In this document: positions 4,602 to 53,355 of the stretch, piece by piece
Layout: each line of letters opens with the position of its first letter
Position numbering within the stretch: the first letter of the stretch is position 1
Assembly (NCBI RefSeq): GCF_001625195.1
Contig: NC_054390.1
Span: forward strand, 1,846,163 to 1,910,162
DNA: 64,000 nt
Reading direction: 5' to 3'
Origin: Drechmeria coniospora
Lineage: Eukaryota; Ascomycota; Sordariomycetes; Hypocreales; Ophiocordycipitaceae
Notes under the pieces: generated by a model
Databases searched by the model: none
What the model was told of the DNA's origin: nothing
What the model saw: the letters and a program-made list of their open reading frames with translations, nothing else
Made by a program: the position numbers and the translations under genes

Positions 4602-4649
4602 TTATTTTTAAACTCTATTAGCCTACCCTTAAGATAATTATTTAGTAAA

Positions 4650-21265: not shown

Positions 21266-22882
21266 TTTTTTTTTGTTTTTTTTTTCATTCATTACGCGCA
21301 TGCAGCCCTAGGGGCTATGGCGCGGCGGCCTATAGGTCCTATAGGGCCTAGAAGACCTAATAGGCCTACTAGACCCTTAGGGTCCTAAGGGCACGCAGGA
21401 GCTAACTAGCTAACTAAACTAGCAGTAACGACTGGCTATTTATATTAAATCAGTAGAGCTTTCCCTCGCATTTCACGAATCTTAGTCCCTAGGCCTAGCT
21501 AGGCCTAGTACTATTCCTCTAGGTACCACTTTGCCGTACTAATATTAGTAGTAGTTAGGAACTCAAATAGAGCCTCCCTTCCTTGCCTAGTACTAAATAA
21601 AATCGGTAGGGTAAGCGGCTTACCCTGTAGGGCTTCCTTTAGGTCTTTCCGTTCCTTCCTATAACGTACGCATTGCAGTAATAGGTGGGTTACAGTCTGT
21701 TTTTGCCCGCACTTACAGGCGTCCGAGTCGATTTTTCCAATCTTTTATTGGTAGGGCTTAAGGTATCCGATCCCTGTTTTTAGTTGTATATAGGCCGATT
21801 GGATAGGCCTAGGCAAATCGGGTAGGCTAGGCTTATACGCAAACCTAGGTTTCCCAGTCCTTCGATAGTGGGCCCCTAGGCCCCTAGCCTTAGGGCCTCG
21901 GGCCTCCTCTCTAGCCCATAGCTCCTTCCACCCCCCTAGGGCTGCTTCCTTTACCCTCCTCCGTAGATAGCTTAGGGAGGTATAGGGGGTACCTATACTA
22001 GGCCTAGTTAGGCCCCCTTTTGCTACCTGGTCTGCAATTTCATTCCCTATAATTCCAACGTGGCTAGGGCACTACGTTAGGGTTATAGCTACCTTCCGGT
22101 CCGCTAGGCTATTTACTAGCTGCCTTGCCTTATAGGCTAGGTCGCTATAGCCTACGGTTACCTTCTGGATAGCTGCTTGGCTATCTATAAAAAGATAGGC
22201 TTCTTGCGGTAGGGGGTTTCGTTGGGATAAGGCCTTTAGGGCCCTCGTTATACCAATTAGCTCGGCATCAACTACTTCGATCCTAGGGCCTAGGTTATAG
22301 GCCTTTGCCCCTAGGGCCCGGCCTGTAGGGTCCGTTTCGTAAAAGGCGCATGAGTTCGTTGTTTGACCCCTAATAGTCCCTTGTGACCCGTCTGTATAAT
22401 ACATAATACAGTTATTAAATTCTAGGTCCCTTAGAAGGGTTTCGTGTTCTACTTTAGCGGTCTCCTTGGGGCTTTGCGAAATACTTATAGAGGCCCTAGG
22501 CCCTAGGGCCCAGGGGGCTTGCCAGGCCGCTCTTTGTCTCTCTAGGCCCCAGTTAGGGCCTATTATTTCCTTGATTTTCGATAGTAGCCGGAATAGCTGT
22601 GTTATAGGCCTAATATAGGCAAAAGTACTTAAATCAGACCCTGATTCGGCTAGTTCGTCCCGTATGGCTATGTTGTAGGCCCTACGGATCGGGTGGTTGT
22701 ACTGAAACATTAGGGTCCTTAGGGCGTAGCCTAGGCAGGCCTTCTGGAACCGTATCTCCGGCGGGGGGATTGCGGCCTCGATTTCTAGGGCTTTTGTAGG
22801 GGACCCCCTAAAGGCCCCTAGGACCTTCGGTAGGGCCTCGTTTTGTAGGCGTTGATAGTACTGTATTAGGCCTTTTTGGCCG
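21266..22882 (-). mobile_element. LINE, 5' truncated (RNase H and 3' part), minus orientation
   Basis: Poly-T (with one G in it) then the LINE 3' end, reading left-to-right in reverse to a point in the RT-RNase H connection near the Gly-Gln repeat. The RNase H frame 22072-22710 is intact. A TAA at 21745-21747 interrupts the C-terminal domain; the same change is in the copy at 45624-48510. The flanks do not form a clear duplication, and host copia sequence for the integrase core is absent here, so insertion or later recombination removed host DNA. Confidence 0.8.
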
Positions 22883-24155
22883 ATTGGGTTGGTTAGGTCG
22901 GTTGGGTTAACTAGGTCTAATAGACCTAGTATCTAGTGTTTTGGATAGTTAAGTTATCCTATAACTAAATGCTTGGAAACTAGGACTATTAGGATTTTAA
23001 TATTCTTTCAGTAAGTTAGTCTAAAGATATTATAGGTTAAGGGATACTATATTAATCCCTAAGACGGTATTGGTTTAGAGAATATTATATTGTATTGCAG
23101 CCTATTGTAAGAAAATAGGACCAATAGTTATAAGGTATTAATTTGCTTAATCTAGTAGGTCAATACTTACTCCAGTAAGTTTAAGTTAAGTAAGGTAGCT
23201 ATTAAATTCCGAATTAAACGCCTTAAGTATTCCTTTATACCCTTTGAGTATAAGGTTATAGTAGGAATTGTAGAGATTGTAACGTTAGGCTACCTGGCCC
23301 TTTTTTTTTTCATTCATTACGCGCATGCAGCCCTAGGGGCTATGGCGCGGCGGCCTATAGGTCCCTTAGGGCCTAGAAGACCTAATAGGCCTACTAGACC
23401 CTTAGGGTCCTAACGGCCCGCAGGAGCTAACTAGCTAACTAAACTAGCAGTAACGACTGGCTATTTATATTAAATCAGTAGAGCTTTCCCTCGCATTTCA
23501 CGAATCTTAGTCCCTAGGCTTAGGCCTAGTACTATTCCTCTAGGTACCACTTTGCCGTACCGATATTAGTAGTAGTTAGGAACTCAAATAGAGCCTCCCT
23601 TCCTTGCCTAACCTGGCCCTTTAAGTACTATTGTTTTAGTAATAGATAGGTATCTATTGGGTTATAAATCCATACAATTAATACTTATAGGCCCTTAGAA
23701 TAACTATCCCAAAGTAGTATAAGTAGGGAGTATTAATTATAATATAAGTAACTAATAGCAATTAATAGGTTTTTTAAAAATCCTTCTAAACAAAGGGAAC
23801 TAAGTTAAATAGAAAGTAATTATTCCTATAAGTCGAAGTTCTTAGTATCTTTAAGCTTAGTATACTCTGGAAATAAGAATGCCTTCTTAGATAGCTCTAT
23901 ATTAGAGCTAAGATTAGTTATTTTAGTAGTAGTAGTACTACTACTATATATTAGGATTCCTTAGATAGGTATATGTTTAGGCTTTATTTTGTTAAGACGT
24001 TTTTGGATTAGTATAGTAATATTGTTTAATTAGTCCGTTAGTTGGTTAAACCGATTGGAAAGATTATTATACTGTATTTGTTACCTTTAAATAATTACTT
24101 TAAGTTCCGATATAATAGGTATTTTGGTGGCCTAACCTTCCTTAGTGGAATCTAT
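22883..24155 (-). pseudogene. Copia gag region, decayed and split by a LINE
   Basis: Starts on the minus strand at 24155 with ATA GAT TCC ACT AAG GAA (start codon ATG changed to ATA; intact in the copy at about 2899). The frame to the left is interrupted by TAA/TAG and by the LINE at 23304-23610. I assign it to gag only from position and start; no zinc knuckle is evident. Confidence 0.45.
23304..23610 (-). mobile_element. LINE 3' fragment, 307 bp
   Basis: Poly-T plus the LINE 3' UTR and the last codons of ORF2. Perfect 12-bp duplication ACCTGGCCCTTT at 23292-23303 and 23611-23622. Confidence 0.92.
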
Positions 24156-27678: not shown

Positions 27679-29092
27679 TCTTTGCAATTGATGCGCAAGA
27701 GGAGGGGATAGTGGAAGTGTATCGCACGGACTAGTAAATCAATTATACTGTTAGTAACAGCAATAAGGGAAGTGCCAGTTAGTAACTGGGCAAGAGTGCA
27801 CAATTGGTAGTACCGAATTATACAAACGAATGCGATTATTTCTTCTAGCTATAGTACAGGAAAAGAGCGGCTATTTATATCTACAGAACAATCCCCAATA
27901 ACGGCTTTATCGGAGATTCCATCGTAGATTAAAGGCGCTATCGTACTATGGCTTAAATGGCTAAAACTATTATACAGTTGGATAACTATTTTAGTTACTT
28001 GTTAGTTGACTGCTTCCGTTATAAGGTTGGATGGATTGTTTTAGTTATTAGCTTGGCTGATTCTATTACATAATAAATAGGTGGTCCGGCCCAAGTTAGT
28101 ATTGTGGGCTGGCAAGCGCTAGTAGCAATTGGGAGAGCAGCAATTGTCGTACCGATCAATTGGCTCCAGTAGTCGACTGGCTACTACATATGTAGGTCAT
28201 ATTGCAGTAGTAAGTTGGTCGGTAGTAGTACTGCCGTATGTTACTCCGAGTTATAGTTCGGAGAAGTAGTATGTTGTATACTATTAGTTAACTCAATATG
28301 CTTACTAATACTCGCAGTATAGTATAGCATCCGTACTAGTAGTACTAGTACTAATACTAATAGGATAGTATCCTATTTAGGTAGTCTTACTAGTATAAAT
28401 ACTAGTATTTTAATACTCCCTCTATTTAGCTAGTATAACTACTGCTAAATAGGGATTCCTTGGAGACCTAGTAGGCTAAGGTAGCGTTGGAAGAGATCAG
28501 CAGTAAGAGCCTTAGTAAGGCCATCGGTAGGTATAGACTTAGTATTTTTTTTTATTAGGTAGCTGATTTAGTATTTAGGTAGCTGATTTTGGCTAGTCCG
28601 TTAGTTGCTTCTTGCCGTATATACCGGAACTTTAGCAATATATGCTTTGTTTGGTTATACTAATTGGGGTTATTGGTATTAGAGATAGATCCATTATTGT
28701 TACATAATAGTAGAATAGGTTTTTGGAGACCTTTGCCTATTTTAGTAAATAGACTATCTAGCTATTTAAGTTCCCGAATAGCTTCCAATAGGGCATCCGA
28801 TTCTGCCTCTACGGTAGAAAGAGCAATAGTACTAGCCCTTTTTAATTTGTAGTAGATAGGTCCGCCTGCTAAGGTAAAGAGGTATCCGTAGGTTGACTTA
28901 GAGGAATCTAAGTCCCCTGTAAAATCGCTATTAGAAATTCCAGATAGATTGGGTACTAAGGAATTAGACCAGTAGTAAATAGCAAGATCTATAGTTCCTT
29001 TTAGATATTGGAGGAGGTTCTTGCCGGCTGATAGCTGTAGGCTAGTAGCTTAGTGTATATACCGAGATAACTATTGTATTGCAAAGGCTATA
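27679..29092 (-). mobile_element. Second copia (subfamily 2) fragment: 3' LTR and RNase H
   Basis: LTR 27679-28415, polypurine tract 28416-28427, then RNase H on the minus strand to 29092 (LLQYLKGTIDLAIYYW, DFTGDLDSSKSTYGYLFTL, STVEAESDALLEAIREL). Better preserved than the copy at 17863-19260, with Asp and Glu catalytic positions still readable. Interrupted at 29092 by a LINE; its continuation reappears inverted at 34494-34602. Confidence 0.8.
28428..29092 (-). pseudogene. Copia RNase H, partial
   Basis: Frame is nearly open, with one TAG in the REL*W segment and a small local duplication near 28545-28590. The reverse transcriptase that should precede it is absent here, so it is a fragment. 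Confidence 0.7.
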
Positions 29093-29096
29093 GTCT

Positions 29097-32000
29097 AGGT
29101 CTATTATTGACCTAGCCTTTAGTACTCCTTTTAACCTACTAAACTGGTCTAACTGGAGGTACTTAGAGGCATCCGGGTCCGATCACCAGGTAATCGCCTT
29201 TGAAGCTAGGGCGCCTATCCTACCTACAGCAAGCCTACTATTCCAGTCTAGGCCCCCCTTATTCAATTACAAAAAGGCCAACTGGAATAAGTATAATTAT
29301 TTATTACAGGAAAAGCAGGCATCCCTAAATCAGCAACTAGATACCCTAATTTCAGTAAGGGATCTAGATGGAATAGCTATACTAATTACAGAGGCTATAC
29401 AGGCAGTAGCTATCGAGGCAATCCCTAGGCTACGGCCTAGTGAACGGTCTAAGCCTTGGTGGACCCCCGAGCTACTAGACTTACGGAAGACCCTTAGCCG
29501 TACACAAAGACTATTTCGGAAAAACCGGAAATGCAAAGAAGACTGGAAAACGGCCCGTAATGCCTATTTTTATGCTATTCGGAAGGCTAAAGTAGGCTAC
29601 TGGGAGACCTTTCTGGCTAATGCAGTTAACAGGGAGGTTTTCCAAGCCTATAACTATACAAAAGCTAGCCAGAATACTAACCTTCCGGGTATATTGTATA
29701 CTAAGGAAGGAAGAGATATAATAGCAAATACCTTCCAGGAAAAATGCGATGCCTTTCTTACAACCCTATTTCCAACAGGGCCTAACGGGCCTAACGGACC
29801 TAACGGACCTAGTGGGCCTAGCGGGCCTAGCGGGCCTAGCGGACCTAGCGGACCTAGCGGGCCTAGCGGGCCTAGCGGGCCTAGCGGGCCTAGCGGGCCT
29901 AGCGGGCCTAGCGGGCCTAGCGGGCCTAGCGGGCCTAGCGGGCCTAACGGGCCTAACGGGCCTAGTGGGCCTAGTAGGAGGCCTACTATAAAACAGGCTA
30001 GTAGAGAAAGGTGGGAGTGGCCTAACCTAGCTTGGAAAGAGGTTAAAGAGGCTATTAATTCGTCTTCGAATAAAAAAGCCCCAGGGCCCGATACTATCGG
30101 TTTCCCCCTTATCCAGCAGACTTATAAGGTTATTCCTAAATTCCTCTACAAGGCCTATAACGCTTTATTTACAGAAGGCTACCACCCTAAGCTATGGCGA
30201 CAAAGTATAGGCATTATCCTCCCTAAGCAAGGCAACCGAGACTATAGGAAGCCTAAGTCTTACAGGGTAATAGCCTTACTAAATTGCCTAGGCAAAGTCC
30301 TAGAAAAACTATTCGCTACGCGATTAAGCTACCTAGCCAATACTACAGACCTATTAGGCCCTACACAACTAGGCGGGCGGAAACAAAGGTCTGCAATAGA
30401 TACAGCCCTGTTACTGACCCACTATATCGAATTACAGCGCCTATCAAGGAAAAAAGCTAGTAGTACTATTACTACTACATTATTTCTTGATATTAAAGGC
30501 GCCTTCGATCACGTATCAAAGACTAAGCTTATAGGGGTTTTACGAAGGCTAGACCTCCCAAAGGCCCTAATTAGCTGGGTTACATCGTTCCTATCAGGCC
30601 GATCGATCCAACTAGCCTTCGACGGCCAAATCCACCAACTAGTCGAAATAGCTATAGGAATACCGCAAGGATCGCCTATAAGCCCTATCTTATTCCTAAT
30701 TTATATTAGGGATATTATAGCGGATAAGGCCTTCCAGTTATCCTATATTGATGACTTTAGCCTAACGGTATCGTCTAGATCTGCCTATAAGAACTGCCGG
30801 GCGCTAGAAGGTATTGTAACTAGGCTTACAGCCCAAGCAACGGACCAAGGGGTCCAATTTGACCACGGGAAAACGGAACTAATCCACTTTACTACACAAA
30901 GAGCCCCTATAACGGAAGGCGTAACAATAGCTAATATAGCAATTACACCAAAGCCCGTTATTAGGTGGCTAGGTATTTGGTTCGATTCAAAGCTATCGTT
31001 TAAATCACACATCGAAAACCGGATAGCCCTAGCTAGGGCCGCCTTCCTAGGCCTATCTAGGCTAGCAAGTACCCAAAAGGGCCTACCCTATAGGGCACTA
31101 CGGCAACTATATATTGCTTGTATTACTACTATAGCGGACTTCGGGGTCCCTGTTTGGTACAAAGGCCAGGGCCAGGGCCAAAAAGGCCTAATACAGTACT
31201 ATCAACGTCTACAAAACGAGGCCCTACCGAAGGTCCTAGGGGCTTTTAGGGGGTCCCCTACAAAAGCCCTAGAAATTGAGGCCGCAATCCCCCCGCCGGA
31301 GATACGGTTCCAGAAGGCCTGCCTAGGCTACGCCCTAAGGACCCTAATGTTTCAGTACAACCACCCGATCCGTAGGGCCTATGACATAGCCGTACGGGAC
31401 GAACTAGCCGAATCGGGGTCTGATTTAGGTACTTTTACCTATATCAGGCCTATAACACAGCTATTCCGGCTACTATCGAAAATTAAGGAAATAATAGGTC
31501 CTAACTGGGGCCTAGAGAGACAAAGAGCGGCCTGGCAAGCCCCCTGGGCCCTAGGGCCTAGGGCCTCTATAAGTATTTCGCAAAGCCCTAAGGAGACCGC
31601 TAAATTAGAACACGAAACCCTTCTAAGGGACCTAGAATTTAATAACTGTATTATTTATTATACAGACGGGTCACAAGGGACTATTAGGGGTCAAACAACG
31701 AACTCGTGCGCCTATTACGAAACGAACCCTACAGGCCGGGCCATAGGGGCAAAGGCCTATAACCTAGGCCCTAGGATCGAAGTAGTTGATGCCGAGCTAA
31801 TTGGTATAACTCGGGCCCTAAAGGCCTTATCCCAACGAAACCCCCTACCGCAAGAAGCCTATCTTTTTATAGACAGCCAAGCAGCTATTCAGAAGGTAAC
31901 CGTAGGCTATAGCGACCTAGCCTATAAGGCAAGGCAGCTAGTAAATAGCCTAGCGGACCGGAAGGTAGCTATAACCCTAACGTGGTGCCCTAGCCACGTT

Positions 32001-32543
32001 GGAATTATAGGGAACGAAATTGCAGACCAGCTTGCAAAGGGTGGCCTAACTAGGCCTATAGGTGCCCCCTATACCTCCCTAAGTTATCTACGGAGGAGAG
32101 TTAAAGAGGCAGCCCTAGGGGGGTGGAAGGAGCTATGGGCTAGGGAGGAGGCCCGAGGCCCTAAGGCTAGGGGCCTAGGGGCCCACTATCGAAGGACTGG
32201 GAAACCTAGGTTTGCGTATAAGCCTAGCCTACCCGATTTGCCTAGGCCTATCCAATCGGCCTATATACAACTAAAAACAGGGATCGGATACCTTAAGCCC
32301 TACCAAAAAAAGATTGGAAAAATCGACTCGGACGCCTGTAAGTGCGGGCAAAAACAGACTGTAACCCACCTATTACTATATTGCGTACGTTATAGGATGG
32401 AACGGAAAGACCTAAAGGAAGCCCTACAGGGTAAGCCGCTTACCCTACCGATTTTATTTAGTACTAGGCAAGGAAGGGAGGCTCTATTTGAGTTCCTAAC
32501 TACTACTAATATCGGTACGGCAAAGTGGTACCTAGAGGAATAG
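29097..32543 (+). CDS. LINE ORF2 (end of endonuclease, reverse transcriptase, RNase H, zinc knuckle), 5' truncated
   Basis: Open from 29097 to TAG at 32541-32543, about 1148 codons. In order: endonuclease end with the catalytic GSDHQVI block; a connector; a Gly-Pro-Ser/Asn repeat (29777-29973); reverse transcriptase with [21 protein letters not shown] and the catalytic YIDD (about 30748-30760). A short Gly-Gln repeat follows, then RNase H ([37 protein letters not shown]) and a C-terminal CxC-x7-H-x4-C knuckle ([16 protein letters not shown]). This architecture is that of Tad1-clade elements. In the 949 residues from 29694 on, only two internal Met codons occur. The frame is intact, but without the 5' half the copy could not move by itself. 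Confidence 0.9.
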   Translation, partial: RSIIDLAFSTPFNLLNWSNWRYLEASGSDHQVIAFEARAPILPTASLLFQSRPPLFNYKKANWNKYNYLLQEKQASLNQQLDTLISVRDLDGIAILITEAIQAVAIEAIPRLRPSERSKPWWTPELLDLRKTLSRTQRLFRKNRKCKEDWKTARNAYFYAIRKAKVGYWETFLANAVNREVFQAYNYTKASQNTNLPGILYTKEGRDIIANTFQEKCDAFLTTLFPTGPNGPNGPNGPSGPSGPSGPSGPSGPSGPSGPSGPSGPSGPSGPSGPSGPSGPSGPNGPNGPSGPSRRPTIKQASRERWEWPNLAWKEVKEAINSSSNKKAPGPDTIGFPLIQQTYKVIPKFLYKAYNALFTEGYHPKLWRQSIGIILPKQGNRDYRKPKSYRVIALLNCLGKVLEKLFATRLSYLANTTDLLGPTQLGGRKQRSAIDTALLLTHYIELQRLSRKKASSTITTTLFLDIKGAFDHVSKTKLIGVLRRLDLPKALISWVTSFLSGRSIQLAFDGQIHQLVEIAIGIPQGSPISPILFLIYIRDIIADKAFQLSYIDDFSLTVSSRSAYKNCRALEGIVTRLTAQATDQGVQFDHGKTELIHFTTQRAPITEGVTIANIAITPKPVIRWLGIWFDSKLSFKSHIENRIALARAAFLGLSRLASTQKGLPYRALRQLYIACITTIADFGVPVWYKGQGQGQKGLIQYYQRLQNEALPKVLGAFRGSPTKALEIEAAIPPPEIRFQKACLGYALRTLMFQYNHPIRRAYDIAVRDELAESGSDLGTFTYIRPITQLFRLLSKIKEIIGPNWGLERQRAAWQAPWALGPRASISISQSPKETAKLEHETLLRDLEFNNCIIYYTDGSQGTIRGQTTNSCAYYETNPTGRAIGAKAYNLGPRIEVVDAELIGITRALKALSQRNPLPQEAYLFIDSQAAIQKVTVGYSDLAYKARQLVNSLADRKVAITLTWCPSHVGIIGNEIADQLAKGGLTRPIGAPYTSLSYLRRRVKEAALGGWKELWAREEARGPKARGLGAHYRRTGKPRFAYKPSLPDLPRPIQSAYIQLKTGIGYLKPYQKKIGKIDSDACKCGQKQTVTHLLLYCVRYRMERKDLKEALQGKPLTLPILFSTRQGREALFEFLTTTNIGTAKWYLEE
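29777..29973 (+). repeat. 9-bp coding minisatellite (GGCCTAGCG units)
   Basis: Tandem GGCCTAGCG/GGCCTAACG units read as Gly-Pro-Ser or Gly-Pro-Asn between endonuclease and reverse transcriptase. The copy at 34834-38877 has one unit fewer, explaining the three-codon length difference between the two ORFs. Confidence 0.95.
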
Positions 32544-32780
32544 TACTAGGCCTAGGCCTAGGGACTAAGATTCGTGAAATGCGAGGGAAAGCTCTACTGA
32601 TTTAATATAAATAGCCAGTCGTTACTGCTAGTTTAGTTAGCTAGTTAGCTCCTGCGTGCCCTTAGGACCCTAAGGGTCTAGTAGGCCTATTAGGTCTTCT
32701 AGGCCCTATAGGACCTATAGGCCGCCGCGCCATAGCCCCTAGGGCTACATGCGCGTAATGAATGAAAAAAAAAAAAAAAA

Positions 32781-33585
32781 CCCTAACGTGGTGCCCTAGC
32801 CACGTTGGAATTATAGGGAATGAAATTGCAGACCAGGTAGCAAAAGGGGGCCTAACTAGGCCTAGTACAGGTACCCCCTATACCTCCCTAAGCTATCTAC
32901 GGAGGAGGGTAAAGGAAGTAGCCCTAGGGGGGTGGAAGGAGCTATGGGCTAGAGAGGAGGCCCGAGGCCCTAAGGCTAGGGGCCTAGGGGCCCACTATCC
33001 AAGGACTGGGAAACCTAGGTTTGCGTATAAGCCTAGCCTACCCGATTTGCCTAGGCCTATCCAATCGGCCTATATACAACTAAAAACAGGGATCGGATAC
33101 CTTAAGCCCTACCAAAAAAAGATTGGAAAAATCGACTCGGACGCCTGTAAGTGCGGGCAAAAACAGACTGTAACCCACCTATTACTGCAATGCGTACGTT
33201 ATAGGAAGGAACGGAAAGACCTAAAGGAAGCCCTACAGGGTAAGCCGCTTACCCTACCGATTTTATTTAGTACTAGGCAAGGAAGGGAGGCTCTATTTGA
33301 GTTCCTAACTACTACTAATATTAGTACGGCAAAGTGGTACCTAGAGGAATAGTACTAGGCCTAGGCCTAGGGACTAAGATTCGTGAAATGCGAGGGAAAG
33401 CTCTACTGATTTAATATAAATAGCCAGTCGTTACAGCTAGTTTAGTTAGCTAGTTAGCTCCTGCGGGCCCTTAGGACCCTGAGGGTCTAGTAGGCCTATT
33501 AGGTCTTCTAGGCCTTAAGGGATCTCTATAGGCCGCCGCGCCATAGCCCCTAGGGCTGCATGCGCGTAATGAATGAAAAAAAAAA
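32781..33585 (+). mobile_element. LINE 3' fragment (about 805 bp), plus orientation
   Basis: Starts abruptly at CCCTAACGTGGTGCC, inside RNase H, directly after the poly-A of the previous LINE, and ends in its own poly-A (33576-33585). Confidence 0.88.
32783..33352 (+). CDS. LINE ORF2 C-terminal fragment (end of RNase H, zinc knuckle)
   Basis: Open frame from the RNase H block [17 protein letters not shown] through the CKCGQKQ-H-C knuckle to the normal stop TAG at 33350-33352. It belongs to the subfamily with LLLQCVRYRKER rather than [12 protein letters not shown]. Only a fragment. Confidence 0.8.
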   Translation, partial: LTWCPSHVGIIGNEIADQVAKGGLTRPSTGTPYTSLSYLRRRVKEVALGGWKELWAREEARGPKARGLGAHYPRTGKPRFAYKPSLPDLPRPIQSAYIQLKTGIGYLKPYQKKIGKIDSDACKCGQKQTVTHLLLQCVRYRKERKDLKEALQGKPLTLPILFSTRQGREALFEFLTTTNISTAKWYLEE

Positions 33586-34493
33586 GCCTAGTTACAATAC
33601 CTTCTAGCGCCCGGCAGTTCTTATAGGCAGATCTAGACGATACCGTTAGGCTAAAGTCATCAATATAGGATAACTGGAAGGCCTTATCCGCTATAATATC
33701 CCTAATATAAATTAGGAATAAGATAGGGCTTATAGGCGATCCTTGCGGTATTCCTATGGCTATTTCGACTAGTTGGTGGATTTGGCCGTCAAAGGCTAGT
33801 TGGATCGATCGACCTGATAGGAACGATGTAACCCAGCTATTTAGGGCCTTTGGGAGGTCTAGCCTCTGTAAAACCCCTATAAGCTTAACCTTTGATACGT
33901 GATCGAAGGCGCCTTTAATGTCAAGGAATAATGTAGTAGTAATAGTACTACTAGTTTTTTTCCTCGATAGGCGCTGTAATTCAATATAGTGAGTTAGTAG
34001 TAGGGCTGTATCTATTGCAGACCTTTGTTTCCGCCCGCCTAGCTGTGTAGGGCCTAATAGGTCTGTAGTATTGGCTAGGTAGCTTAGTCGCGTAGCGAAT
34101 AGTCTTTCTAGGACTTTACCTAGGCAATTTAGTAAGGCTATTACCCTATAAGACTTAGGCTTCCTATAGTCTCGGTTGCCTTGCTTAAGAAGGATAATGC
34201 CTATACTTTGTCGCCATAGCTTAGGGTGGTAGCCTTCCGTAAATAACGCGTTATAGGCCTTGTAGAGGAATTTAGGAATAACCTTGTAAGTCTGCTGGAT
34301 AAGGAGGAAGCCAATAGTATCGGCCCTGGGGTTTTTTTGTTCGAAGACAAATTAATAGCCTCTTTAACCTTTTTCCAAGCTAGGCTAGGCCACTCCCACC
34401 TTTCTCTACTAGCCTGTCTTATAGTGGGCCTCCTACTGGGCCCGCTAGGCCCGTTAGGTCCGCTAGGCCCGTTAGGCCCGCTAGGCCCGCTAC
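33586..34493 (-). pseudogene. LINE ORF2 internal fragment (Gly-Pro repeat to RT palm), reverse orientation, no 3' end
   Basis: On the minus strand it runs from a short Gly-Pro-Ser tract (34430-34493) through the RT fingers to just past the YIDD motif, then stops at the poly-A of the neighbouring plus-strand LINE. It has a frameshift near 34325-34345 and more substitutions than the other copies, so it is an older copy. A fragment with neither a LINE 3' end nor a poly-A points to rearrangement rather than simple insertion. Confidence 0.8.
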
Positions 34494-34602: not shown

Positions 34603-34833
34603 TTTTTTTTTTCATTCATTACGCGCATGTAGCCCTAGGGGCTATGGCGCGGCGGCCTATAGGTCCTATAGGGCCTAGAAGACCTAATAGGCCTACTAGA
34701 CCCTTAGGGTCCTAAGGGCACGCAGGAGCTAACTAGCTAACTAAACTAGCAGTAACGACTGGCTATTTATATTAAATCAGTAGAGCTTTCCCTCGCATTT
34801 CACGAATCTTAGTCCCTAGGCCTAGGCCTAGTA

Positions 34834-37800
34834 CTATTCCTCTAGGTACCACTTTGCCGTACCGATATTAGTAGTAGTTAGGAACTCAAATAGAGCCTCC
34901 CTTCCTTGCCTAGTACTAAATAAAATCGGTAGGGTAAGCGGCTTACCCTGTAGGGCTTCCTTTAGGTCTTTCCGTTCCATCCTATAACGTACGCAATATA
35001 GTAATAGGTGGGTTACAGTCTGTTTTTGCCCGCACTTACAGGCGTCCGAGTCGATTTTTCCAATCTTTTTTTGGTAGGGCTTAAGGTATCCGATCCCTGT
35101 TTTTAGTTGTATATAGGCCGATTGGATAGGCCTAGGCAAATCGGGTAGGCTAGGCTTATACGCAAACCTAGGTTTCCCAGTCCTTCGATAGTGGGCCCCT
35201 AGGCCCCTAGCCTTAGGGCCTCGGGCCTCCTCCCTAGCCCATAGCTCCTTCCACCCCCCTAGGGCTGCCTCTTTAACTCTCCTCCGTAGATAACTTAGGG
35301 AGGTATAGGGGGCACCTATAGGCCTAGTTAGGCCACCCTTTGCAAGCTGGTCTGCAATTTCGTTCCCTATAATTCCAACGTGGCTAGGGCACCACGTTAG
35401 GGTTATAGCTACCTTCCGGTCCGCTAGGCTATTTACTAGCTGCCTTGCCTTATAGGCTAGGTCGCTATAGCCTACGGTTACCTTCTGAATAGCTGCTTGG
35501 CTGTCTATAAAAAGATAGGCTTCTTGCGGTAGGGGGTTTCGTTGGGATAAGGCCTTTAGGGCCCGAGTTATACCAATTAGCTCGGCATCAACTACTTCGA
35601 TCCTAGGGCCTAGGTTATAGGCCTTTGCCCCTAGGGCCCGGCCTGTAGGGTTCGTTTCGTAATAGGCGCACGAGTTCGTTGTTTGACCCCTAATAGTCCC
35701 TTGTGACCCGTCTGTATAATAAATAATACAGTTATTAAATTCTAGGTCCCTTAGAAGGGTTTCGTGTTCTAATTTAGCGGTCTCCTTAGGGCTTTGCGAA
35801 ATACTTATAGAGGCCCTAGGCCCTAGGGCCCAGGGGGCTTGCCAGGCCGCTCTTTGTCTCTCTAGGCCCCAGTTAGGACCTATTATTTCCTTAATTTTCG
35901 ATAGTAGCCGGAATAGCTGTGTTATAGGCCTGATATAGGTAAAAGTACCTAAATCAGACCCCGATTCGGCTAGTTCGTCCCGTACGGCTATGTCATAGGC
36001 CCTACGGATCGGGTGGTTGTACTGAAACATTAGGGTCCTTAGGGCGTAGCCTAGGCAGGCCTTCTGGAACCGTATCTCCGGCGGGGGGATTGCGGCCTCA
36101 ATTTCTAGGGCTTTTGTAGGGGACCCCCTAAAAGCCCCTAGGACCTTCGGTAGGGCCTCGTTTTGTAGACGTTGATAGTACTGTATTAGGCCTTTTTGGC
36201 CCTGGCCCTGGCCTTTGTACCAAACAGGGACCCCGAAGTCCGCTATAGTAGTAATACAAGCAATATATAGTTGCCGTAGTGCCCTATAGGGTAGGCCCTT
36301 TTGGGTACTTGCTAGCCTAGATAGGCCTAGGAAGGCGGCCCTAGCTAGGGCTATCCGGTTTTCGATGTGTGATTTAAACGATAGCTTTGAATCGAACCAA
36401 ATACCTAGCCACCTAATAACGGGCTTTGGTGTAATTGCTATATTAGCTATTGTTACGCCTTCCGTTATAGGGGCTCTTTGTGTAGTAAAGTGGATTAGTT
36501 CCGTTTTCCCGTGGTCAAATTGGACCCCTTGGTCCGTTGCTTGGGCTGTAAGCCTAGTTACAATACCTTCTAGCGCCCGGCAGTTCTTATAGGCAGATCT
36601 AGACGATACCGTTAGGCTAAAGTCATCAATATAGGATAACTGGAAGGCCTTATCCGCTATAATATCCCTAATATAAATTAGGAATAAGATAGGGCTTATA
36701 GGCGATCCTTGCGGTATTCCTATAGCTATTTCGACTAGTTGGTGGATTTGGCCGTCGAAGGCTAGTTGGATCGATCGGCCTGATAGGAACGATGTAACCC
36801 AGCTAATTAGGGCCTTTGGGAGGTCTAGCCTTCGTAAAACCCCTATAAGCTTAGTCTTTGATACGTGATCGAAGGCGCCTTTAATATCAAGAAATAATGT
36901 AGTAGTAATAGTACTACTAGCTTTTTTCCTTGATAGGCGCTGTAATTCGATATAGTGGGTCAGTAACAGGGCTGTATCTATTGCAGACCTTTGTTTCCGC
37001 CCGCCTAGTTGTGTAGGGCCTAATAGGTCTGTAGTATTGGCTAGGTAGCTTAATCGCGTAGCGAATAGTTTTTCTAGGACTTTGCCTAGGCAATTTAGTA
37101 AGGCTATTACCCTGTAAGACTTAGGCTTCCTATAGTCTCGGTTGCCTTGCTTAGGGAGGATAATGCCTATACTTTGTCGCCATAGCTTAGGGTGGTAGCC
37201 TTCTGTAAATAAAGCGTTATAGGCCTTGTAGAGGAATTTAGGAATAACCTTATAAGTCTGCTGGATAAGGGGGAAACCGATAGTATCGGGCCCTGGGGCT
37301 TTTTTATTCGAAGACGAATTAATAGCCTCTTTAACCTCTTTCCAAGCTAGGTTAGGCCACTCCCACCTTTCTCTACTAGCCTGTTTTATAGTAGGCCTCC
37401 TACTAGGCCCACTAGGCCCGTTAGGCCCGTTAGGCCCGCTAGGCCCGCTAGGCCCGCTAGGCCCGCTAGGCCCGCTAGGCCCGCTAGGCCCGCTAGGCCC
37501 GCTAGGTCCGCTAGGTCCGCTAGGTCCGCTAGGCCCGCTAGGCCCGCTAGGCCCACTAGGTCCGTTAGGTCCGTTAGGCCCGTTAGGCCCTGTTGGAAAT
37601 AGGGTTGTAAGAAAGGCATCGCATTTTTCCTGGAAGGTATTTGCTATTATATCTCTTCCTTCCTTAGTATACAATATACCCGGAAGGTTAGTATTCTGGC
37701 TAGCTTTTGTATAGTTATAGGCTTGGAAAACCTCCCTGTTAACTGCATTAGCCAGAAAGGTCTCCCAGTAGCCTACTTTAGCCTTCCGAATAGCATAAAA

Positions 37801-38877
37801 ATAGGCATTACGGGCCGTTTTCCAGTCTTCTTTGCATTTCCGGTTTTTCCGAAATAGTCTTTGTGTACGGCTAAGGGTCTTCCGTAAGTCTAGTAGCTCG
37901 GGGGTCCACCAAGGCTTAGACCGTTCACTAGGCCGTAGCCTAGGGATTGCCTCGATAGCTACTGCCTGTATAGCCTCTGTAATTAGTATAGCTATTCCAT
38001 CTAGATCCCTTACTGAAATTAGGGTATCTAGTTGCTGATTTAGGGATGCCTGCTTTTCCTGTAATAAACAGTTATACTTATTCCAGTTGGCCTTCTTGTA
38101 ATTGAATAGGGGGGGCCTAGACTGGAATAGTAGGCTTTCTGTAGGTAGGATAGGCGTCCTAGCTTCAAAGGCGATTACCTGGTGATCGGACCCGGATGCC
38201 TCTAAGTACCTCCAGTTAGACCAGTTTAGTAGGTTAAAAGGGGTACTAAAGGCTAGGTCAATAATAGACCTAGACTTTAAGCCGGGCCTAAAATAGGTAC
38301 CCCCTTTAACCTCTTCTGGGTCCTGGATTAGGCTAGCCTTCTGGCTTGTTAGCCAGTGTACTAGCCTTTGTGCCTTAGTAGCCCTAATAGGGTCTACCGT
38401 TGGATTCCATAATGGGTGGTGTAGGTTGAAGTCCCCTATAATAAGTGTAGGCTTGTTGCACCTATAGGGTAGGAGGAGCCTCTCAACTGTATAGGGGTTC
38501 TGGCTTGGTTGCCCGCTAGGCCTAGCGCTAGGCCTAGGCCCGTTAGGCCCGTTAGGCCCGCTAGGCCCGCTAGGCCCGCTAGGCCCGCTAGGCCCGCTAG
38601 GCCCGTTAGGTCCGATAGGCCCGTTAGGCCCGCTAGGCCTATTAGGCCCGCTAGGGCCCTCGTAGGCCTGTTCCTTTTCGTTGTAAAGGTTAATTAGGAT
38701 AAATGGTTCAGTACCTAATATCTCTATAGCTTGGATATCCGGATCGGAGAATAAGTCGTATCGGGGATTATAAGCTAGCCTACTAGCCTTCCTAATATAC
38801 GTTAAGACCCTAGGTCTAACTGTAATACTTAAAGGGCTAGTTGACTGTTGTAGTGTAATAATATAGTAAGAGGGGTG
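34834..38877 (-). CDS. LINE ORF2: endonuclease (N-terminus broken), reverse transcriptase, RNase H
   Basis: Open on the minus strand from 38877 to TAG at 34834-34836, 1348 codons. It begins after two in-frame TAA codons (38899-38901 and 38878-38880) at positions that are CAA in the copy at 63700-63730, so both are CpA-to-TpA changes. Upstream of them the start of the endonuclease (HNARR, DIILLQEPYC) is still readable. The endonuclease then shows [11 protein letters not shown] and GSDHQVIAF and is itself interrupted by a Gly-Pro-Ser repeat (38510-38650). RT, RNase H and knuckle match the copy at 29097-32543 apart from one repeat unit and single residues (for example ALGAKA in place of AIGAKA). 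The RT-RNase H part may still be translatable; the whole ORF2 is not. Confidence 0.88.
37399..37590 (-). repeat. 9-bp coding minisatellite in ORF2 connector
   Basis: Same Gly-Pro-Ser/Asn repeat and position as at 29777-29973. Confidence 0.95.
38510..38650 (-). repeat. 9-bp coding minisatellite inside the endonuclease domain
   Basis: Units of GGCCTAGCG reading Gly-Pro-Ser/Asn on the minus strand, placed between [12 protein letters not shown] and the block leading to the GDFN motif. It is a second location of the same repeat within one ORF. Confidence 0.9.
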
Positions 38878-39048
38878 TTAGAGCCCTATAAATGCTCCTT
38901 AAATTTTAGGGCAGTAGGGCTCTTGTAGAAGGATAATATCGGTACGTTGCTTGTAGGCCTGTTGGAGTACCGATTGGTGTGCTAAATTATGCCTCCGTGC
39001 GTTATGCTGGATAAGCCTAAGATAGCACTTTTCTGGGCTATTTCGACT

Positions 39049-39359
39049 TATAGTCTAATAGCCTAATAGATTTCGCACTCGGTACTATTAGCCTTGTGCT
39101 TACCGTTACAGTTAGCACATACTAGTTTAAGGTAGTTGCAGGGCTCTGTAGCGTTATAGCTAGTGCACCGGTTAGTCTTTGTATAGTACCCTTTGGCGCA
39201 TAGTGCGTAGCGGATTTTCTTGTTGCAAAGGCTTAGGTCGTGCCCGTAGCCCTAACACCTAAAGCATTAGGTCTTTAGCGTATAGGCCTTATAGGCTATA
39301 ACCTTGGCCCGAATTCCAGCTATAAATAGCCCATTTTTAAGGCTATAGCTAGCCTCTTT
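39049..39359 (-). pseudogene. LINE ORF1 C-terminus (zinc knuckles), broken
   Basis: Matches the ORF1 end at 63240-63550. The first knuckle reads CFRC*GYGH, with TAG where the other copy has CAG, a CpA-to-TpA change. Further C-to-T changes are spread through it. 5' truncated at about 39359. Confidence 0.8.
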
Positions 39360-48870: not shown

Positions 48871-51784
48871 TTTTTTTTTTTTTTTTCATTCATTACGCGC
48901 ATGTAGCCCTAGGGGCTATGGCGCGGCGGCCTATAGGTCCTATAGGGCCTAGAAGACCTAATAGGCCTACTAGACCCTTAGGGTCCTAAGGGCACGCAGG
49001 AGCTAACTAGCTAACTAAACTAGCAGTAACGACTGGCTATTTATATTAAATCAGTAGAGCTTTCCCTCGCATTTCACGAATCTTAGTCCCTAGGCCTAGG
49101 CCTAGTACTATTCCTCTAGGTACCACTTTGCCGTACCGATATTAGTAGTAGTTAGGAACTCAAATAGAGCCTCCCTTCCTTGCCTAGTACTAAATAAAAT
49201 CGGTAGGGTAAGCGGCTTACCCTGTAGGGCTTCCTTTAGGTCTTTCCGTTCCATCCTATAACGTACGCAATATAGTAATAGGTGGGTTACAGTCTGTTTT
49301 TGCCCGCACTTACAGGCGTCCGAGTCGATTTTTCCAATCTTTTTTTGGTAGGGCTTAAGGTATCCGATCCCTGTTTTTAGTTGTATATAGGCCGATTGGA
49401 TAGGCCTAGGCAAATCGGGTAGGCTAGGCTTATACGCAAACCTAGGTTTCCCAGTCCTTCGATAGTGGGCCCCTAGGCCCCTAGCCTTAGGGCCTCGGGC
49501 CTCCTCCCTAGCCCATAGCTCCTTCCACCCCCCTAGGGCTGCCTCTTTAACTCTCCTCCGTAGATAACTTAGGGAGGTATAGGGGGCACCTATAGGCCTA
49601 GTTAGGCCACCCTTTGCAAGCTGGTCTGCAATTTCGTTCCCTATAATTCCAACGTGGCTAGGGCACCACGTTAGGGTTATAGCTACCTTCCGGTCCGCTA
49701 GGCTATTTACTAGCTGCCTTGCCTTATAGGCTAGGTCGCTATAGCCTACGGTTACCTTCTGAATAGCTGCTTGGCTGTCTATAAAAAGATAGGCTTCTTG
49801 CGGTAGGGGGTTTCGTTGGGATAAGGCCTTTAGGGCCCGAGTTATACCAATTAGCTCGGCATCAACTACTTCGATCCTAGGGCCTAGGTTATAGGCCTTT
49901 GCCCCTAGGGCCCGGCCTGTAGGGTTCGTTTCGTAATAGGCGCACGAGTTCGTTGTTTGACCCCTAATAGTCCCTTGTGACCCGTCTGTATAATAAATAA
50001 TACAGTTATTAAATTCTAGGTCCCTTAGAAGGGTTTCGTGTTCTAATTTAGCGGTCTCCTTAGGGCTTTGCGAAATACTTATAGAGGCCCTAGGCCCTAG
50101 GGCCCAGGGGGCTTGCCAGGCCGCTCTTTGTCTCTCTAGGCCCCAGTTAGGACCTATTATTTCCTTAATTTTCGATAGTAGCCGGAATAGCTGTGTTATA
50201 GGCCTGATATAGGTAAAAGTACCTAAATCAGACCCCGATTCGGCTAGTTCGTCCCGTACGGCTATGTCATAGGCCCTACGGATCGGGTGGTTGTACTGAA
50301 ACATTAGGGTCCTTAGGGCGTAGCCTAGGCAGGCCTTCTGGAACCGTATCTCCGGCGGGGGGATTGCGGCCTCAATTTCTAGGGCTTTTGTAGGGGACCC
50401 CCTAAAAGCCCCTAGGACCTTCGGTAGGGCCTCGTTTTGTAGACGTTGATAGTACTGTATTAGGCCTTTTTGGCCCTGGCCCTGGCCTTTGTACCAAACA
50501 GGGACCCCGAAGTCCGCTATAGTAGTAATACAAGCAATATATAGTTGCCGTAGTGCCCTATAGGGTAGGCCCTTTTGGGTACTTGCTAGCCTAGATAGGC
50601 CTAGGAAGGCGGCCCTAGCTAGGGCTATCCGGTTTTCGATGTGTGATTTAAACGATAGCTTTGAATCGAACCAAATACCTAGCCACCTAATAACGGGCTT
50701 TGGTGTAATTGCTATATTAGCTATTGTTACGCCTTCCGTTATAGGGGCTCTTTGTGTAGTAAAGTGGATTAGTTCCGTTTTCCCGTGGTCAAATTGGACC
50801 CCTTGGTCCGTTGCTTGGGCTGTAAGCCTAGTTACAATACCTTCTAGCGCCCGGCAGTTCTTATAGGCAGATCTAGACGATACCGTTAGGCTAAAGTCAT
50901 CAATATAGGATAACTGGAAGGCCTTATCCGCTATAATATCCCTAATATAAATTAGGAATAAGATAGGGCTTATAGGCGATCCTTGCGGTATTCCTATAGC
51001 TATTTCGACTAGTTGGTGGATTTGGCCGTCGAAGGCTAGTTGGATCGATCGGCCTGATAGGAACGATGTAACCCAGCTAATTAGGGCCTTTGGGAGGTCT
51101 AGCCTTCGTAAAACCCCTATAAGCTTAGTCTTTGATACGTGATCGAAGGCGCCTTTAATATCAAGAAATAATGTAGTAGTAATAGTACTACTAGCTTTTT
51201 TCCTTGATAGGCGCTGTAATTCGATATAGTGGGTCAGTAACAGGGCTGTATCTATTGCAGACCTTTGTTTCCGCCCGCCTAGTTGTGTAGGGCCTAATAG
51301 GTCTGTAGTATTGGCTAGGTAGCTTAATCGCGTAGCGAATAGTTTTTCTAGGACTTTGCCTAGGCAATTTAGTAAGGCTATTACCCTGTAAGACTTAGGC
51401 TTCCTATAGTCTCGGTTGCCTTGCTTAGGGAGGATAATGCCTATACTTTGTCGCCATAGCTTAGGGTGGTAGCCTTCTGTAAATAAAGCGTTATAGGCCT
51501 TGTAGAGGAATTTAGGAATAACCTTATAAGTCTGCTGGATAAGGGGGAAACCGATAGTATCGGGCCCTGGGGCTTTTTTATTCGAAGACGAATTAATAGC
51601 CTCTTTAACCTCTTTCCAAGCTAGGTTAGGCCACTCCCACCTTTCTCTACTAGCCTGTTTTATAGTAGGCCTCCTACTAGGCCCACTAGGCCCGTTAGGC
51701 CCGTTAGGCCCGCTAGGTCCGCTAGGCCCGCTAGGCCCGCTAGGCCCGCTAGGCCCGCTAGGCCCGCTAGGCCCGCTAGGCCCG
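48871..51784 (-). mobile_element. LINE, 5' truncated in the Gly-Pro repeat, inserted in gypsy B (minus orientation)
   Basis: 2914 bp. Perfect 13-bp duplication CCTAATCCCCCTT at 48858-48870 and 51785-51797. Sequence almost identical to 34603-37590. Confidence 0.95.
49108..51784 (-). CDS. LINE ORF2 copy (RT, RNase H, zinc knuckle), intact from truncation point
   Basis: Same protein as the corresponding part of 34834-38877, ending at TAG 49108-49110. Between the truncation point and codon 50304-50302 (about 490 codons) there is no in-frame ATG, GTG or TTG; the first Met is in [10 protein letters not shown] motifs ([23 protein letters not shown]), RNase H motifs and the C-terminal knuckle are all present. 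It lacks a 5' end and so any evident means of expression. Confidence 0.85.
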
Positions 51785-51797
51785 CCTAATCCCCCTT

Positions 51798-52703: not shown

Positions 52704-53343
52704 TTTTTTTTTTTTTTTTTTTTTTTATTCATTACGCGCATGCAGCCCTAGGGGCTATGGCGCGGCGGCCTATAGGTCCCATAGGGCCTAGAAGACCTAA
52801 TAGGCCTACTAGACCCTTAGGGTCCTAAGGGCACGCAGGAGCTAACTAGCTAACTAAACTAGCAGTAACGACTGGCTATTTATATTAAATCAGTAGAGCT
52901 TTCCCTCGCATTTCACGAATCTTAGTCCCTAGGCCTAGGCCTAGTACTATTCCTCTAGGTACCACTTTGCCGTACCGATATTAGTAGTAGTTAGGAACTC
53001 AAATAGAGCCTCCCTTCCTTGCCTAGTACTAAATAAAATCGGTAGGGTAAGCGGCTTACCCTGTAGGGCTTCCTTTAGGTCTTTCCGTTCCTTCCTATAA
53101 CGTACGCATTGTAGCAATAGGTGGGTTACAGTCTGTTTTTGCCCGCACTTACAGGCGTCCGAGTCGATTTTTCCAATCTTTTTTTGGTAGGGCTTAAGGT
53201 ATCCGATCCCTGTTTTTAGTTGTATATAGGCCGATTGGATAGGCCTAGGCAAATCGGGTAGACTAGGCTTATACGCAAACCTAGGTTTCCCAGTCCTTCG
53301 ATAGTGGGCCCCTAGGCCCCTAGCCTTAGGGCCTCGGGCCTCC
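52704..53343 (-). mobile_element. LINE 3' fragment (640 bp) in gypsy B
   Basis: Long poly-T, 3' UTR and the last about 130 codons of ORF2, which read open to the normal stop (52947-52949). Perfect 12-bp duplication TCTTGCAAGCTT at 52692-52703 and 53344-53355. Confidence 0.95.
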
Positions 53344-53355
53344 TCTTGCAAGCTT

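What the first reader, a model, noticed from the sequence alone, without database searches (positions are those of the whole stretch)
29097..32543. LINE ORF2 nearly without methionine and with CTA/TTA leucine: a RIP-filtered but working coding sequence?
The 949 residues from 29694 to the stop contain only two internal Met codons, and the copy at 48871-51784 has about 490 consecutive codons with no in-frame ATG, GTG or TTG. In a sampled stretch (30001-30420) Leu is mostly CTA or TTA. RIP acts on CpA, so on the coding strand TpG becomes TpA: CTG to CTA, TTG to TTA, GTG to GTA and ATG to ATA, which is the pattern seen, while Trp TGG (where TAG would be lethal) is kept. The KGD2 gene beside it uses Leu codons normally. 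Inference: the family descends from a RIP-hit ancestor that lost most removable CpA/TpG sites, which would make it a poor RIP target. That may explain several near-identical intact ORFs among dead LTR elements.
Basis: partly seen in the sequence, partly recalled or inferred. Interest (0 to 1): 0.78.

Follow-up and report, generated by a model that had tools for sequence, protein, structure and literature searches.

The report
Jumping gene scrubbed of methionine codons
A fungal jumping gene has lost nearly all the DNA letter pairs attacked by its host's mutation defence wherever the loss did not change its protein, along with almost all its methionines and the usual start signal of its main enzyme, which gives a readable record of how a genomic parasite persists in a mutating host.

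Summary
In the longest LINE ORF2 frame of the window, 2 of 1,347 codons are Met, 0 of 39 Val are GTG and 5 of 143 Leu are CTG/TTG. The depletion sits where RIP would be silent: third-base T is 91% before A but 16-38% before C, G or T, and third-base A is 97% after T but 22-60% otherwise; host genes show neither. Silent RIP-able sites number 26 against 218±10 expected, missense 134 against 150±10, nonsense 90.

Relatives' Met positions are mostly Leu CTA here, not ATA. The family is not shielded: nonsense sites are all kept, and 25 of 89 are already hit in some copy.

New: all 25 ORF1/ORF2 junctions found in the genome read ATAA, so ORF2's first codon overlaps ORF1's stop and is ATA where relatives have ATG. 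One copy is open for 1,432 codons with its only ATG at codon 1,019. EN-RT must start without AUG, most simply by termination-reinitiation. Low Met recurs among relatives (34 of 118 rows, at least 18 changes on the tree).

The parts
29089..32780 (+). LINE copy of the finding (5'-truncated); open ORF2 frame 29097-32543, 3' UTR and A tail after it
   Evidence: 99.3% identical to the 34603-38877 copy over 3,686 nt
34603..39358 (-). LINE copy with the longest ORF2 frame of the window (34834-38877, 1,347 codons; EN PF14529, RVT_1, RNase_H) and the 3' part of ORF1
39048..39051 (-). ORF1/ORF2 junction of that copy: ATAA (ORF2 first codon ATA at 39051-39049, ORF1 stop TAA at 39050-39048); its ORF2 stops after 50 codons
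45624..48507 (+). 5'-truncated LINE copy with a 13-nt target site duplication
48877..51785 (-). 5'-truncated LINE copy, 99.93% identical to the 34603-38877 copy, 12-nt target site duplication; 497 codons without ATG/GTG/TTG
21276..22881 (-). 5'-truncated LINE copy
23301..23610 (-). short 3' LINE piece with a 9-nt target site duplication
32779..33585 (+). 3' LINE piece
33584..34492 (-). inner LINE piece, 95% identical
52716..53345 (-). short 3' LINE piece with a 10-nt target site duplication
62960..63565 (+). 3' part of ORF1 (cysteine/histidine knuckle pattern by eye; no Pfam hit), ending in TAA at 63563-63565, with an earlier TAG five codons before it in this copy
63562..63564 (+). first codon of the ORF2 frame, ATA, overlapping the ORF1 stop (ATAA)
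63550..63577 (+). predicted 11-bp hairpin whose loop is the ATA; 28 nt identical in 21 of 21 junctions aligned
4001..8000 (.). RIP-exhausted tract, 2.2 CpA+TpG per kb (ORF2: 62-63 per kb)

Best explanation
This is a non-LTR retrotransposon family that has lived for long in a host making RIP (C to T in CpA, on either strand). In each round of copying and light RIP only copies without damaging hits go on, so silent CpA/TpG sites drain away (CTG to CTA, TTG to TTA, GTG to GTA, NNC|A to NNT|A), while Trp, Gln and other sites where RIP is damaging stay. Met is lost because ATG is a RIP site with tolerable replacements: positions that can be Met or Leu end as Leu CTA, which RIP cannot change. The filter also took the ORF2 start: an ancestral ATGA stop-start overlap became ATAA, which keeps the ORF1 stop (TGA to TAA) but leaves ORF2 with AUA. 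ORF2 is then most likely translated by termination-reinitiation at the overlap, where non-AUG starts are on record in viruses. Shown: silent-site-only depletion with internal controls; RIP-context changes among copies; retrotransposed copies; ATAA in all 25 junctions found; one copy with no AUG before codon 1,019. Inferred: ancestral ATG, reinitiation at AUA (about 0.5 for this step alone), long co-existence with RIP. The confidence given is for the RIP filter.
For: Codon-phase test: CpA at 0.86, 0.67, 0.20 and TpG at 0.84, 0.10, 0.40 of expectation at codon positions 1-2, 2-3, 3-1. Internal controls: third-base T in 210 of 231 NNY before A against 27 of 173, 35 of 92, 40 of 113 before C, G, T; third-base A in 138 of 143 NTR against 64 of 106, 104 of 206, 26 of 120 in NCR, NAR, NGR; host sample 80 of 481 and 48 of 209. 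Silent/missense/nonsense RIP sites 26/134/90 against 218+-10/150+-10/90 with host codons. ORF1: T in 64 of 79 before A, A in 31 of 32 NTR. Among copies RIP-type changes at 14 of 26 silent, 43 of 122 missense, 25 of 89 nonsense sites, against 68 of 598, 68 of 834, 0 of 33 for other C>T, on both strands. Host holds two DNA methylase genes with open frames and RIP evidence is published (PMC4792172, passages). Target site duplications in 4 of 8 copies tested. Junction ATAA in 25 of 25; in the nearest relative P0007 the ORF2 Met lies 13 residues before IQHNA, as the ATA does here.
Against: No DNA of relatives or of RIP-free fungi was available, so the codon signal is tested in one genome only. TpG at positions 3-1 is also low (0.40), where RIP would be missense; T before G is however as frequent as in host genes. 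Met-to-Ile by ATG>ATA, the direct RIP product, is not what the alignment shows. In P0009, P0011, P0012, P0018 and P0020 the start Met is one residue further upstream and would fall on ACT, not ATA. An A before a TAA stop is common, so ATA at the overlap could be chance. Of 8 junction copies read through, 6 stop within 741 codons and one of the other two (C28, near-duplicate of C27) ends off the natural end. No transcript or protein data.
Confidence: 0.85

Rival explanations
1. Adaptive RIP evasion: selection favoured codons that offer RIP fewer targets, so the family is a poor target and survives for that reason.
For: RIP-able sites are about 45% fewer than in host codons (250 against about 458). 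Most LINE RT rows are free of stops (24 of 32) while most other RT rows are not (6 of 66), sorted by eye against the places.
Against: Sites that kill are not reduced: 90 nonsense sites, Trp 1.78% and Gln 5.34% against relatives' means of 1.70% and 5.08%; missense 134 against 150+-10; T before G as in host genes. Leu went to CTA (66%) rather than to CTC or CTT (13% together), which is conversion, not avoidance. 25 of 89 nonsense sites are hit in some copy.
Confidence: 0.07
2. General AT or codon-usage drift of the element, or selection against start codons, with no role for RIP.
For: Codon use differs from the host at other positions too: Arg AGG 0.54 against 0.17, Pro CCT 0.51 against 0.17, His CAT 0 of 17, and NNY before C has less T than in host genes (0.16 against 0.38).
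Against: The T and A enrichment depends on the neighbouring base exactly as RIP predicts (odds ratios 27 and 34 in ORF2, 0.35 and 0.55 in the host sample); ATG avoidance would not touch CTG or NNC|A; the same contexts mutate fastest among copies.
Confidence: 0.04
3. For the ORF2 start: the family is mobilised in trans, so no copy needs its own ORF2 start.
For: No junction with ATG was found among 25; 6 of 8 junction copies read have early stops; a source copy could lie in an unassembled or N stretch.
Against: Non-RIP changes in ORF2 show purifying selection among copies (A/T>G/C 30 of 1,310 missense against 60 of 659 silent), and one copy is open for 1,432 codons. A source with ATG would be expected to leave ATG copies.
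Confidence: 0.2
4. For the ORF2 start: sexual-stage A-to-I mRNA editing turns AUA into AUG (and the ORF1 stop UAA into UGA).
For: In Fusarium editing prefers UAG and UAA, with U before and A or G after the edited A, in hairpin loops (PMC4817773, passages); editing is described as a common feature of Sordariomycetes (PMC11087585, passages), the class of D. coniospora. The ATA's last A lies in UAA and in the loop of a predicted 11-bp hairpin.
Against: Edited RNA used as template would write ATG into new copies: 0 of 25. A>G after T is not raised among copies: 12 of 470, against 17 of 367, 10 of 166, 6 of 193 after A, C, G. The hairpin was found after the fact and 46 of 5,677 positions of the element have as many centred pairs. 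No sexual stage is identified in this fungus (PMC4792172).
Confidence: 0.06

Closest known systems
Fungal EN-RT-RNase H LINEs (Tad1-like; this label is recalled). Nearest named relatives: Elaphomyces granulatus P0007 (67% identity) and Hirsutella minnesotensis P0016 (56%)
   Same: EN, RT and RNase H in ORF2, a cysteine/histidine-knuckle ORF1, 3' A tail, target site duplications; low Met also in P0007 (0.24%) and P0016 (0.23%)
   Different: ORF2 begins with ATA at the ORF1 stop instead of ATG; codon data for the relatives not available
RIP (repeat-induced point mutation) as described in Neurospora and other Pezizomycotina
   Same: C to T in CpA context on both strands, TpA excess, CpA/TpG-exhausted repeats nearby
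   Different: RIP is usually reported as decay of dead copies; here its mark is restricted to silent sites of a reading frame under selection
Termination-reinitiation at overlapping stop-start codons (LINE SART1 UAAUG, caliciviruses, influenza B, victoriviruses; PMC5972666 and PMC2793014, passages)
   Same: Stop of the upstream ORF overlaps the first codon of the downstream ORF by a shift of one base; non-AUG reinitiation reported for murine norovirus and cited for other viruses
   Different: Natural start codon here would be AUA; no experiment; the upstream ribosome-binding motif was not tested
Escape of fungal retrotransposons from RIP by divergence into subfamilies (hypothesis examined for crapaud in Podospora, PMC10787394, passages)
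   Same: A retrotransposon persisting under RIP
   Different: That is about sequence divergence below RIP's recognition limit; here copies are 93-100% identical over long stretches

Membership tests
RIP-shaped sequence | C>T changes concentrated in CpA on both strands | tested here: met
   C>T before A 53 of 165 sites, G>A after T 35 of 86; other contexts 14 of 311 to 33 of 136
RIP-shaped sequence | High TpA/ApT and low (CpA+TpG)/(ApC+GpT) | tested here: met
   ORF2 2.05 and 0.65; host stretches 0.68-1.06 and 1.02-1.31
RIP-shaped sequence | Host carries the RIP methyltransferase genes | tested here: inconclusive
   Two DNA methylase loci with open frames of 654 and 1,373 aa; not identified further as RID or DIM-2
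RIP-shaped sequence | Mutation arises in the sexual cycle in duplicated DNA | not testable with these tools
   needs crosses; no sexual stage is identified in this fungus (PMC4792172, passages)
Tad1-like fungal LINE | ORF2 with APE-type EN, RT and RNase H | tested here: met
   PF14529, PF00078, PF00075 in P0002
Tad1-like fungal LINE | ORF1 with CCHC zinc knuckles | tested here: inconclusive
   knuckle pattern seen by eye in the ORF1 end, no Pfam hit for 62960-63550
Tad1-like fungal LINE | Target-primed retrotransposition: 5' truncation, A tail, target site duplication | tested here: met
   shared 3' end and varied 5' ends; duplications of 9-13 nt in 4 of 8 copies tested
Tad1-like fungal LINE | Groups with Tad1 reference elements in an RT tree | not tested
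   no named Tad1 reference was fetched; relatives are unnamed or annotated only as reverse transcriptases or hypothetical proteins
Termination-reinitiation signal | Overlapping or adjacent stop and start codons | tested here: met
   ATAA in 25 of 25 junctions, if AUA is taken as start
Termination-reinitiation signal | AUG as the downstream start | tested here: not met
   ATA in 25 of 25
Termination-reinitiation signal | Downstream product depends on translation of the upstream ORF | not testable with these tools
   needs a reporter assay

The most novel reading that the evidence does not exclude
RIP broke the ORF2 start codon (AUG to AUA), and the AUA, held in the loop of an 11-bp hairpin with U before and A after its last base, is put back to AUG in RNA by the A-to-I mRNA editing of the Sordariomycete sexual stage: two host systems acting in opposite directions on the same TpG/TpA step, with the LINE's reverse transcriptase gated to the sexual stage.
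Probability: 0.06. Interest if true: 0.88.

Novelty: new variant of a known kind. Interest (0 to 1): 0.64.

Why it matters
RIP is usually read as decay. Here it can be read as a filter on a lineage that stays alive, with silent, missense and nonsense sites as built-in controls, so the question of how a transposon persists under RIP becomes measurable from one sequence. Met content of LINE proteins (0 to 30 internal Met among 118 relatives) may serve as a rough gauge of RIP exposure across fungi. A 1,432-codon frame whose first AUG is at codon 1,019, with AUA at the stop-start overlap in every junction found, is a natural test of non-AUG reinitiation in a eukaryotic transposon.

Tried and rejected
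Rejected: 'poor RIP target explains intact ORFs' (nonsense and missense sites are not reduced). Rejected: direct ATG to ATA as the main route of Met loss. Rejected by argument: splicing of ORF1 to ORF2 as source of a start (a spliced template would lose the intron on retrotransposition). Judged unlikely: -1 frameshift at the junction (the ORF2 frame has a TAG two codons before the ATA, and the bases between are no slippery heptamer by eye). Disfavoured: A-to-I editing.

Led nowhere: DNA of relatives in viral contigs (6 loci, 22-48% identity over 52-258 residues; not followed). A second protein search aimed at powdery-mildew LINEs as RIP-free control (none named among the 120 listed of 564). 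Berkeleyomyces RIP status (listing only). PDB sequence search: human LINE-1 and R2 over the RT, plus collagen-like chains. Independent pairs on the tree, Leu rising as Met falls: 4.7 for and 0.1 against on average, median p 0.06; His, Ile, Tyr, Val and Thr also undecided. Junction hairpin: z -5.6 for 31 nt cut exactly, -2.6 in 51 nt, -1.1 in 121 nt, and windows of 28, 36 and 52 nt centred on the ATA rank only 1,061 of 5,729, 758 of 5,721 and 1,934 of 5,705 in the element, so it is suggestive at most.

Limits: the host sample is 10 open stretches, 3,435 codons, taken stop to stop and not trimmed to gene models; only the acyltransferase gene among them was checked by Pfam. In some searches pieces under 600 nt and contigs C14, C15, C16, C18, C24, C28 were dropped as likely duplicates, leaving 33 segments, which are not independent events. 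One search scored 40 of its 92 candidates fully, one search scored 35 of 378, and the tool calls counts lower bounds. One search scored 7,992 candidates and lists 120 of 248. A count in my notebook (9 of 21 copies with an extra ORF1 TAG) was wrong; it is 8 of 21. One search oriented loci wrongly and was redone. The tree is FastTree. That silent-site RIP filtering of a transposon is not in print is claimed only for the searches in this library; their hits were seen as listings, and passages of two (PMC12543289, PMC10787394) were read.
Full report
What the window is. The window is 64 kb of contig C2 of a 32.8-Mb assembly in 28 contigs. The three large contigs are 12,542,233, 10,204,147 and 9,751,215 bases, which fit the 12.5, 10.2 and 9.8 Mb chromosomes reported for Drechmeria coniospora, a nematode-killing fungus with three inferred chromosomes, acrocentric regional centromeres and evidence of RIP (PMC4792172, passages read). 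The species is inferred from these sizes, not from a named record. It belongs to the Hypocreales, Sordariomycetes.

The element. The finding is a copy of a LINE whose ORF2 holds an endonuclease domain, RT and RNase H. One 3-kb stretch gives 92 matches in the genome. All matches listed on the three chromosomes lie in one interval each: C1 3.005-3.202 Mb, C2 1.659-1.900 Mb, C3 7.901-8.098 Mb; the rest are on small contigs between C14 and C28. With the published statement that retrotransposons are enriched in centromeres this suggests centromeric clusters (inference; I saw no centromere coordinates). Copies share the 3' end and differ in the 5' end, and 4 of 8 copies tested in the window have target site duplications of 9-13 nt beside the A tail, so they arose by retrotransposition.

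The silent-site filter. In the ORF2 frame 34834-38877, CpA is at 0.86, 0.67 and 0.20 of expectation at codon positions 1-2, 2-3 and 3-1, and TpG at 0.84, 0.10 and 0.40. The two lowest values are the places where RIP is silent. The internal control is stronger. The third base of NNY codons is T in 210 of 231 cases before A, but in 27 of 173 before C, 35 of 92 before G and 40 of 113 before T. The third base of NTR codons is A in 138 of 143, against 64 of 106 in NCR, 104 of 206 in NAR and 26 of 120 in NGR (minisatellites masked). Ten host stretches (3,435 codons) go the other way: 80 of 481 before A, 48 of 209 in NTR. With the same protein in host codons one expects 218±10 silent, 150±10 missense and 90 nonsense RIP sites; ORF2 has 26, 134 and 90. 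ORF1 shows the same (T in 64 of 79 before A, A in 31 of 32 NTR).

Conversion, not avoidance. Codons chosen to avoid TpG could be CTC or CTT; instead CTA is 66% of Leu and CTC plus CTT 13%. T before G, which exposes a missense site, is used as in host genes (0.38 against 0.39). Trp and Gln, the nonsense sites, are 1.78% and 5.34% in the RT-RNase H part against means of 1.70% and 5.08% in 119 relatives. So the family has not become harder to kill. RIP-context changes are found among copies at 14 of 26 silent, 43 of 122 missense and 25 of 89 nonsense sites, on both strands, while non-RIP A/T to G/C changes show purifying selection (30 of 1,310 missense, 60 of 659 silent). Open frames are best read as young copies of a lineage under selection. 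The neighbourhood is not exempt from RIP: three tracts in the window have 2.2, 8.0 and 2.3 CpA+TpG per kb against 62-63 in ORF2, and of 98 RT matches in the genome 24 of 32 LINE rows but only 6 of 66 other rows are free of stops (sorted by eye); TGA occurs in 2 of the 98 rows.

Methionine. Where relatives of at least 58% identity have Met, this family has Leu in 32 of 70 cells (29 CTA) and Ile in 17 (11 ATC, 6 ATT, no ATA, although ATA is 150 of 424 Ile codons where those relatives have Ile). With more distant relatives it has Leu in 359 of 836 (284 CTA) and Ile in 114 (25 ATA). Cells repeat positions and are not independent. The simplest account is that positions that can be Met or Leu end in CTA, a state that RIP cannot change. 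Among 118 relatives of 1,230-1,420 aa internal Met ranges from 0 to 30, median 10; 3 have none and 10 have at most 2. The 11 lowest have more Leu (11.6 against 9.8%), less His (1.95 against 2.79), more Tyr (3.71 against 2.92) and less Ile (6.5 against 7.5) than the 33 highest; Trp is 1.75 against 1.96 and Gln 5.1 against 4.8. On a FastTree tree, Met under 0.4% occurs in 34 of 118 rows, the query included, and needs at least 18 changes. Pyrenophora and Bipolaris proteins are at 0-0.12%, Berkeleyomyces at 1.9-2.0%; I could not establish the RIP status of the last (listing).

The missing start. ORF1 ends CTA TAA and the ORF2 frame, one base back, reads TAG ACT ATA AGT CGA. A pattern with ATG in place of ATA and up to 2 mismatches finds 25 sites, the same 25 places as the DNA search; all read ATA. 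Eleven are on the chromosomes, 14 on small contigs that may partly duplicate each other; a junction with 3 or more differences or in an N stretch would be missed. Eight junction copies could be read on: the ORF2 frame is open for 54, 50, 741, 14, 1,432, 1,383, 271 and 271 codons. The 1,432-codon copy (C27) runs to the natural end and has its only ATG at codon 1,019 (0-based), behind the RT domain. Of 120 relatives, 11 have their start Met as the only Met in the first 400 residues; 82 of 82 whose EN motif lies near the N-terminus start with M, but gene callers demand a start codon, so this is biased. In P0007 the Met lies 13 residues before IQHNA, exactly where the ATA lies here; in P0009, P0011, P0012, P0018 and P0020 it is one residue further. 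One RIP change turns ATGA into ATAA, silent for the ORF1 stop but not for the ORF2 start. Overlapping AUGA or UAAUG sites are typical of termination-reinitiation, described for the LINE SART1 and several viruses, and reinitiation at non-AUG codons is reported for murine norovirus with reference to others (PMC5972666 and PMC2793014, passages). I take reinitiation at AUA as most likely (about 0.5 for this step alone), with mobilisation in trans and RNA editing as rivals.

Hairpin. The AUA is the loop of a predicted 11-bp hairpin at 63550-63577, identical in the 21 of 25 junctions aligned. This is post hoc: 46 of 5,677 positions have as many centred pairs. It would suit a structured reinitiation site or an editing site; editing is disfavoured by 0 of 25 ATG junctions and by no A>G excess after T (12 of 470).

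Verdict. Observation confirmed; interpretation partly supported. The mechanism is a passive RIP filter under purifying selection, with an unexpected loss of the ORF2 AUG across the family. RIP, fungal LINEs and stop-start coupling are known. New as far as these searches go are the silent-site-only RIP filtering of a living reading frame, the Met depletion recurring among relatives, and AUA at the stop-start overlap.

Noticed in passing
29778-29974, 37403-37590, 38534-38668, 62661-62786: A 9-bp minisatellite (GGGCCTAGC and variants) sits in frame in ORF1 and at two places of ORF2, coding for collagen-like Gly-Pro-Ser repeats (Pfam Collagen hits). The unit holds no CpA or TpG, so RIP cannot touch it, and its length differs between copies; two copies (45613 and 51795) begin inside it.
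   Followed up: partly
G000 C1 3.005-3.202 Mb, C2 1.659-1.910 Mb, C3 7.901-8.098 Mb: The chromosomal LINE matches listed are confined to one interval per chromosome, probably the centromeres; the window's left edge with the acyltransferase gene may be a border between genes and such a region.
   Followed up: partly
C1:3180505-3182860 and C14:2670-5671 (query positions 1016-1029): The LINE inserts into itself; in two arrangements the break is at nearly the same query position with 12-14 bases present on both sides, which hints at a preferred target inside the element.
   Followed up: no
G000:C2:1910163-1917162, right of the window: The 7 kb beyond the window end read N throughout (assembly gap or withheld stretch), so the copy that starts at the right edge cannot be read further.
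   Followed up: no
61865-62021: Tandem repeats rich in CpA (unit CCGATCCCACCCAACGAGACCCAC) lie upstream of the ORF1 frame, unlike the CpA-poor reading frames; perhaps recently acquired or not part of the element.
   Followed up: no
ORF2 34834-38877: His is CAC in 17 of 17 codons, and T is rarer before C than in host genes (27 of 173 against 163 of 434). RIP on CpA does not explain either directly.
   Followed up: partly
63548-63550 and the same place in other copies: 8 of 21 aligned copies carry TAG instead of CAG five codons before the ORF1 stop, a RIP-type change that may be tolerated or may mark dead copies.
   Followed up: no
G000:C3:7744-8226 (-): Another RT frame without stops (554 aa open frame) lies within 8 kb of a contig end and has the best RVT_1 score in the genome.
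   Followed up: no
RIP-exhausted tracts 4001-8000, 14001-18000, 56001-59000: CpG is almost gone there as well (2.5-3.8 per kb) while CC+GG and CT+AG remain; ORF2 keeps about 40 CpG per kb.
   Followed up: no
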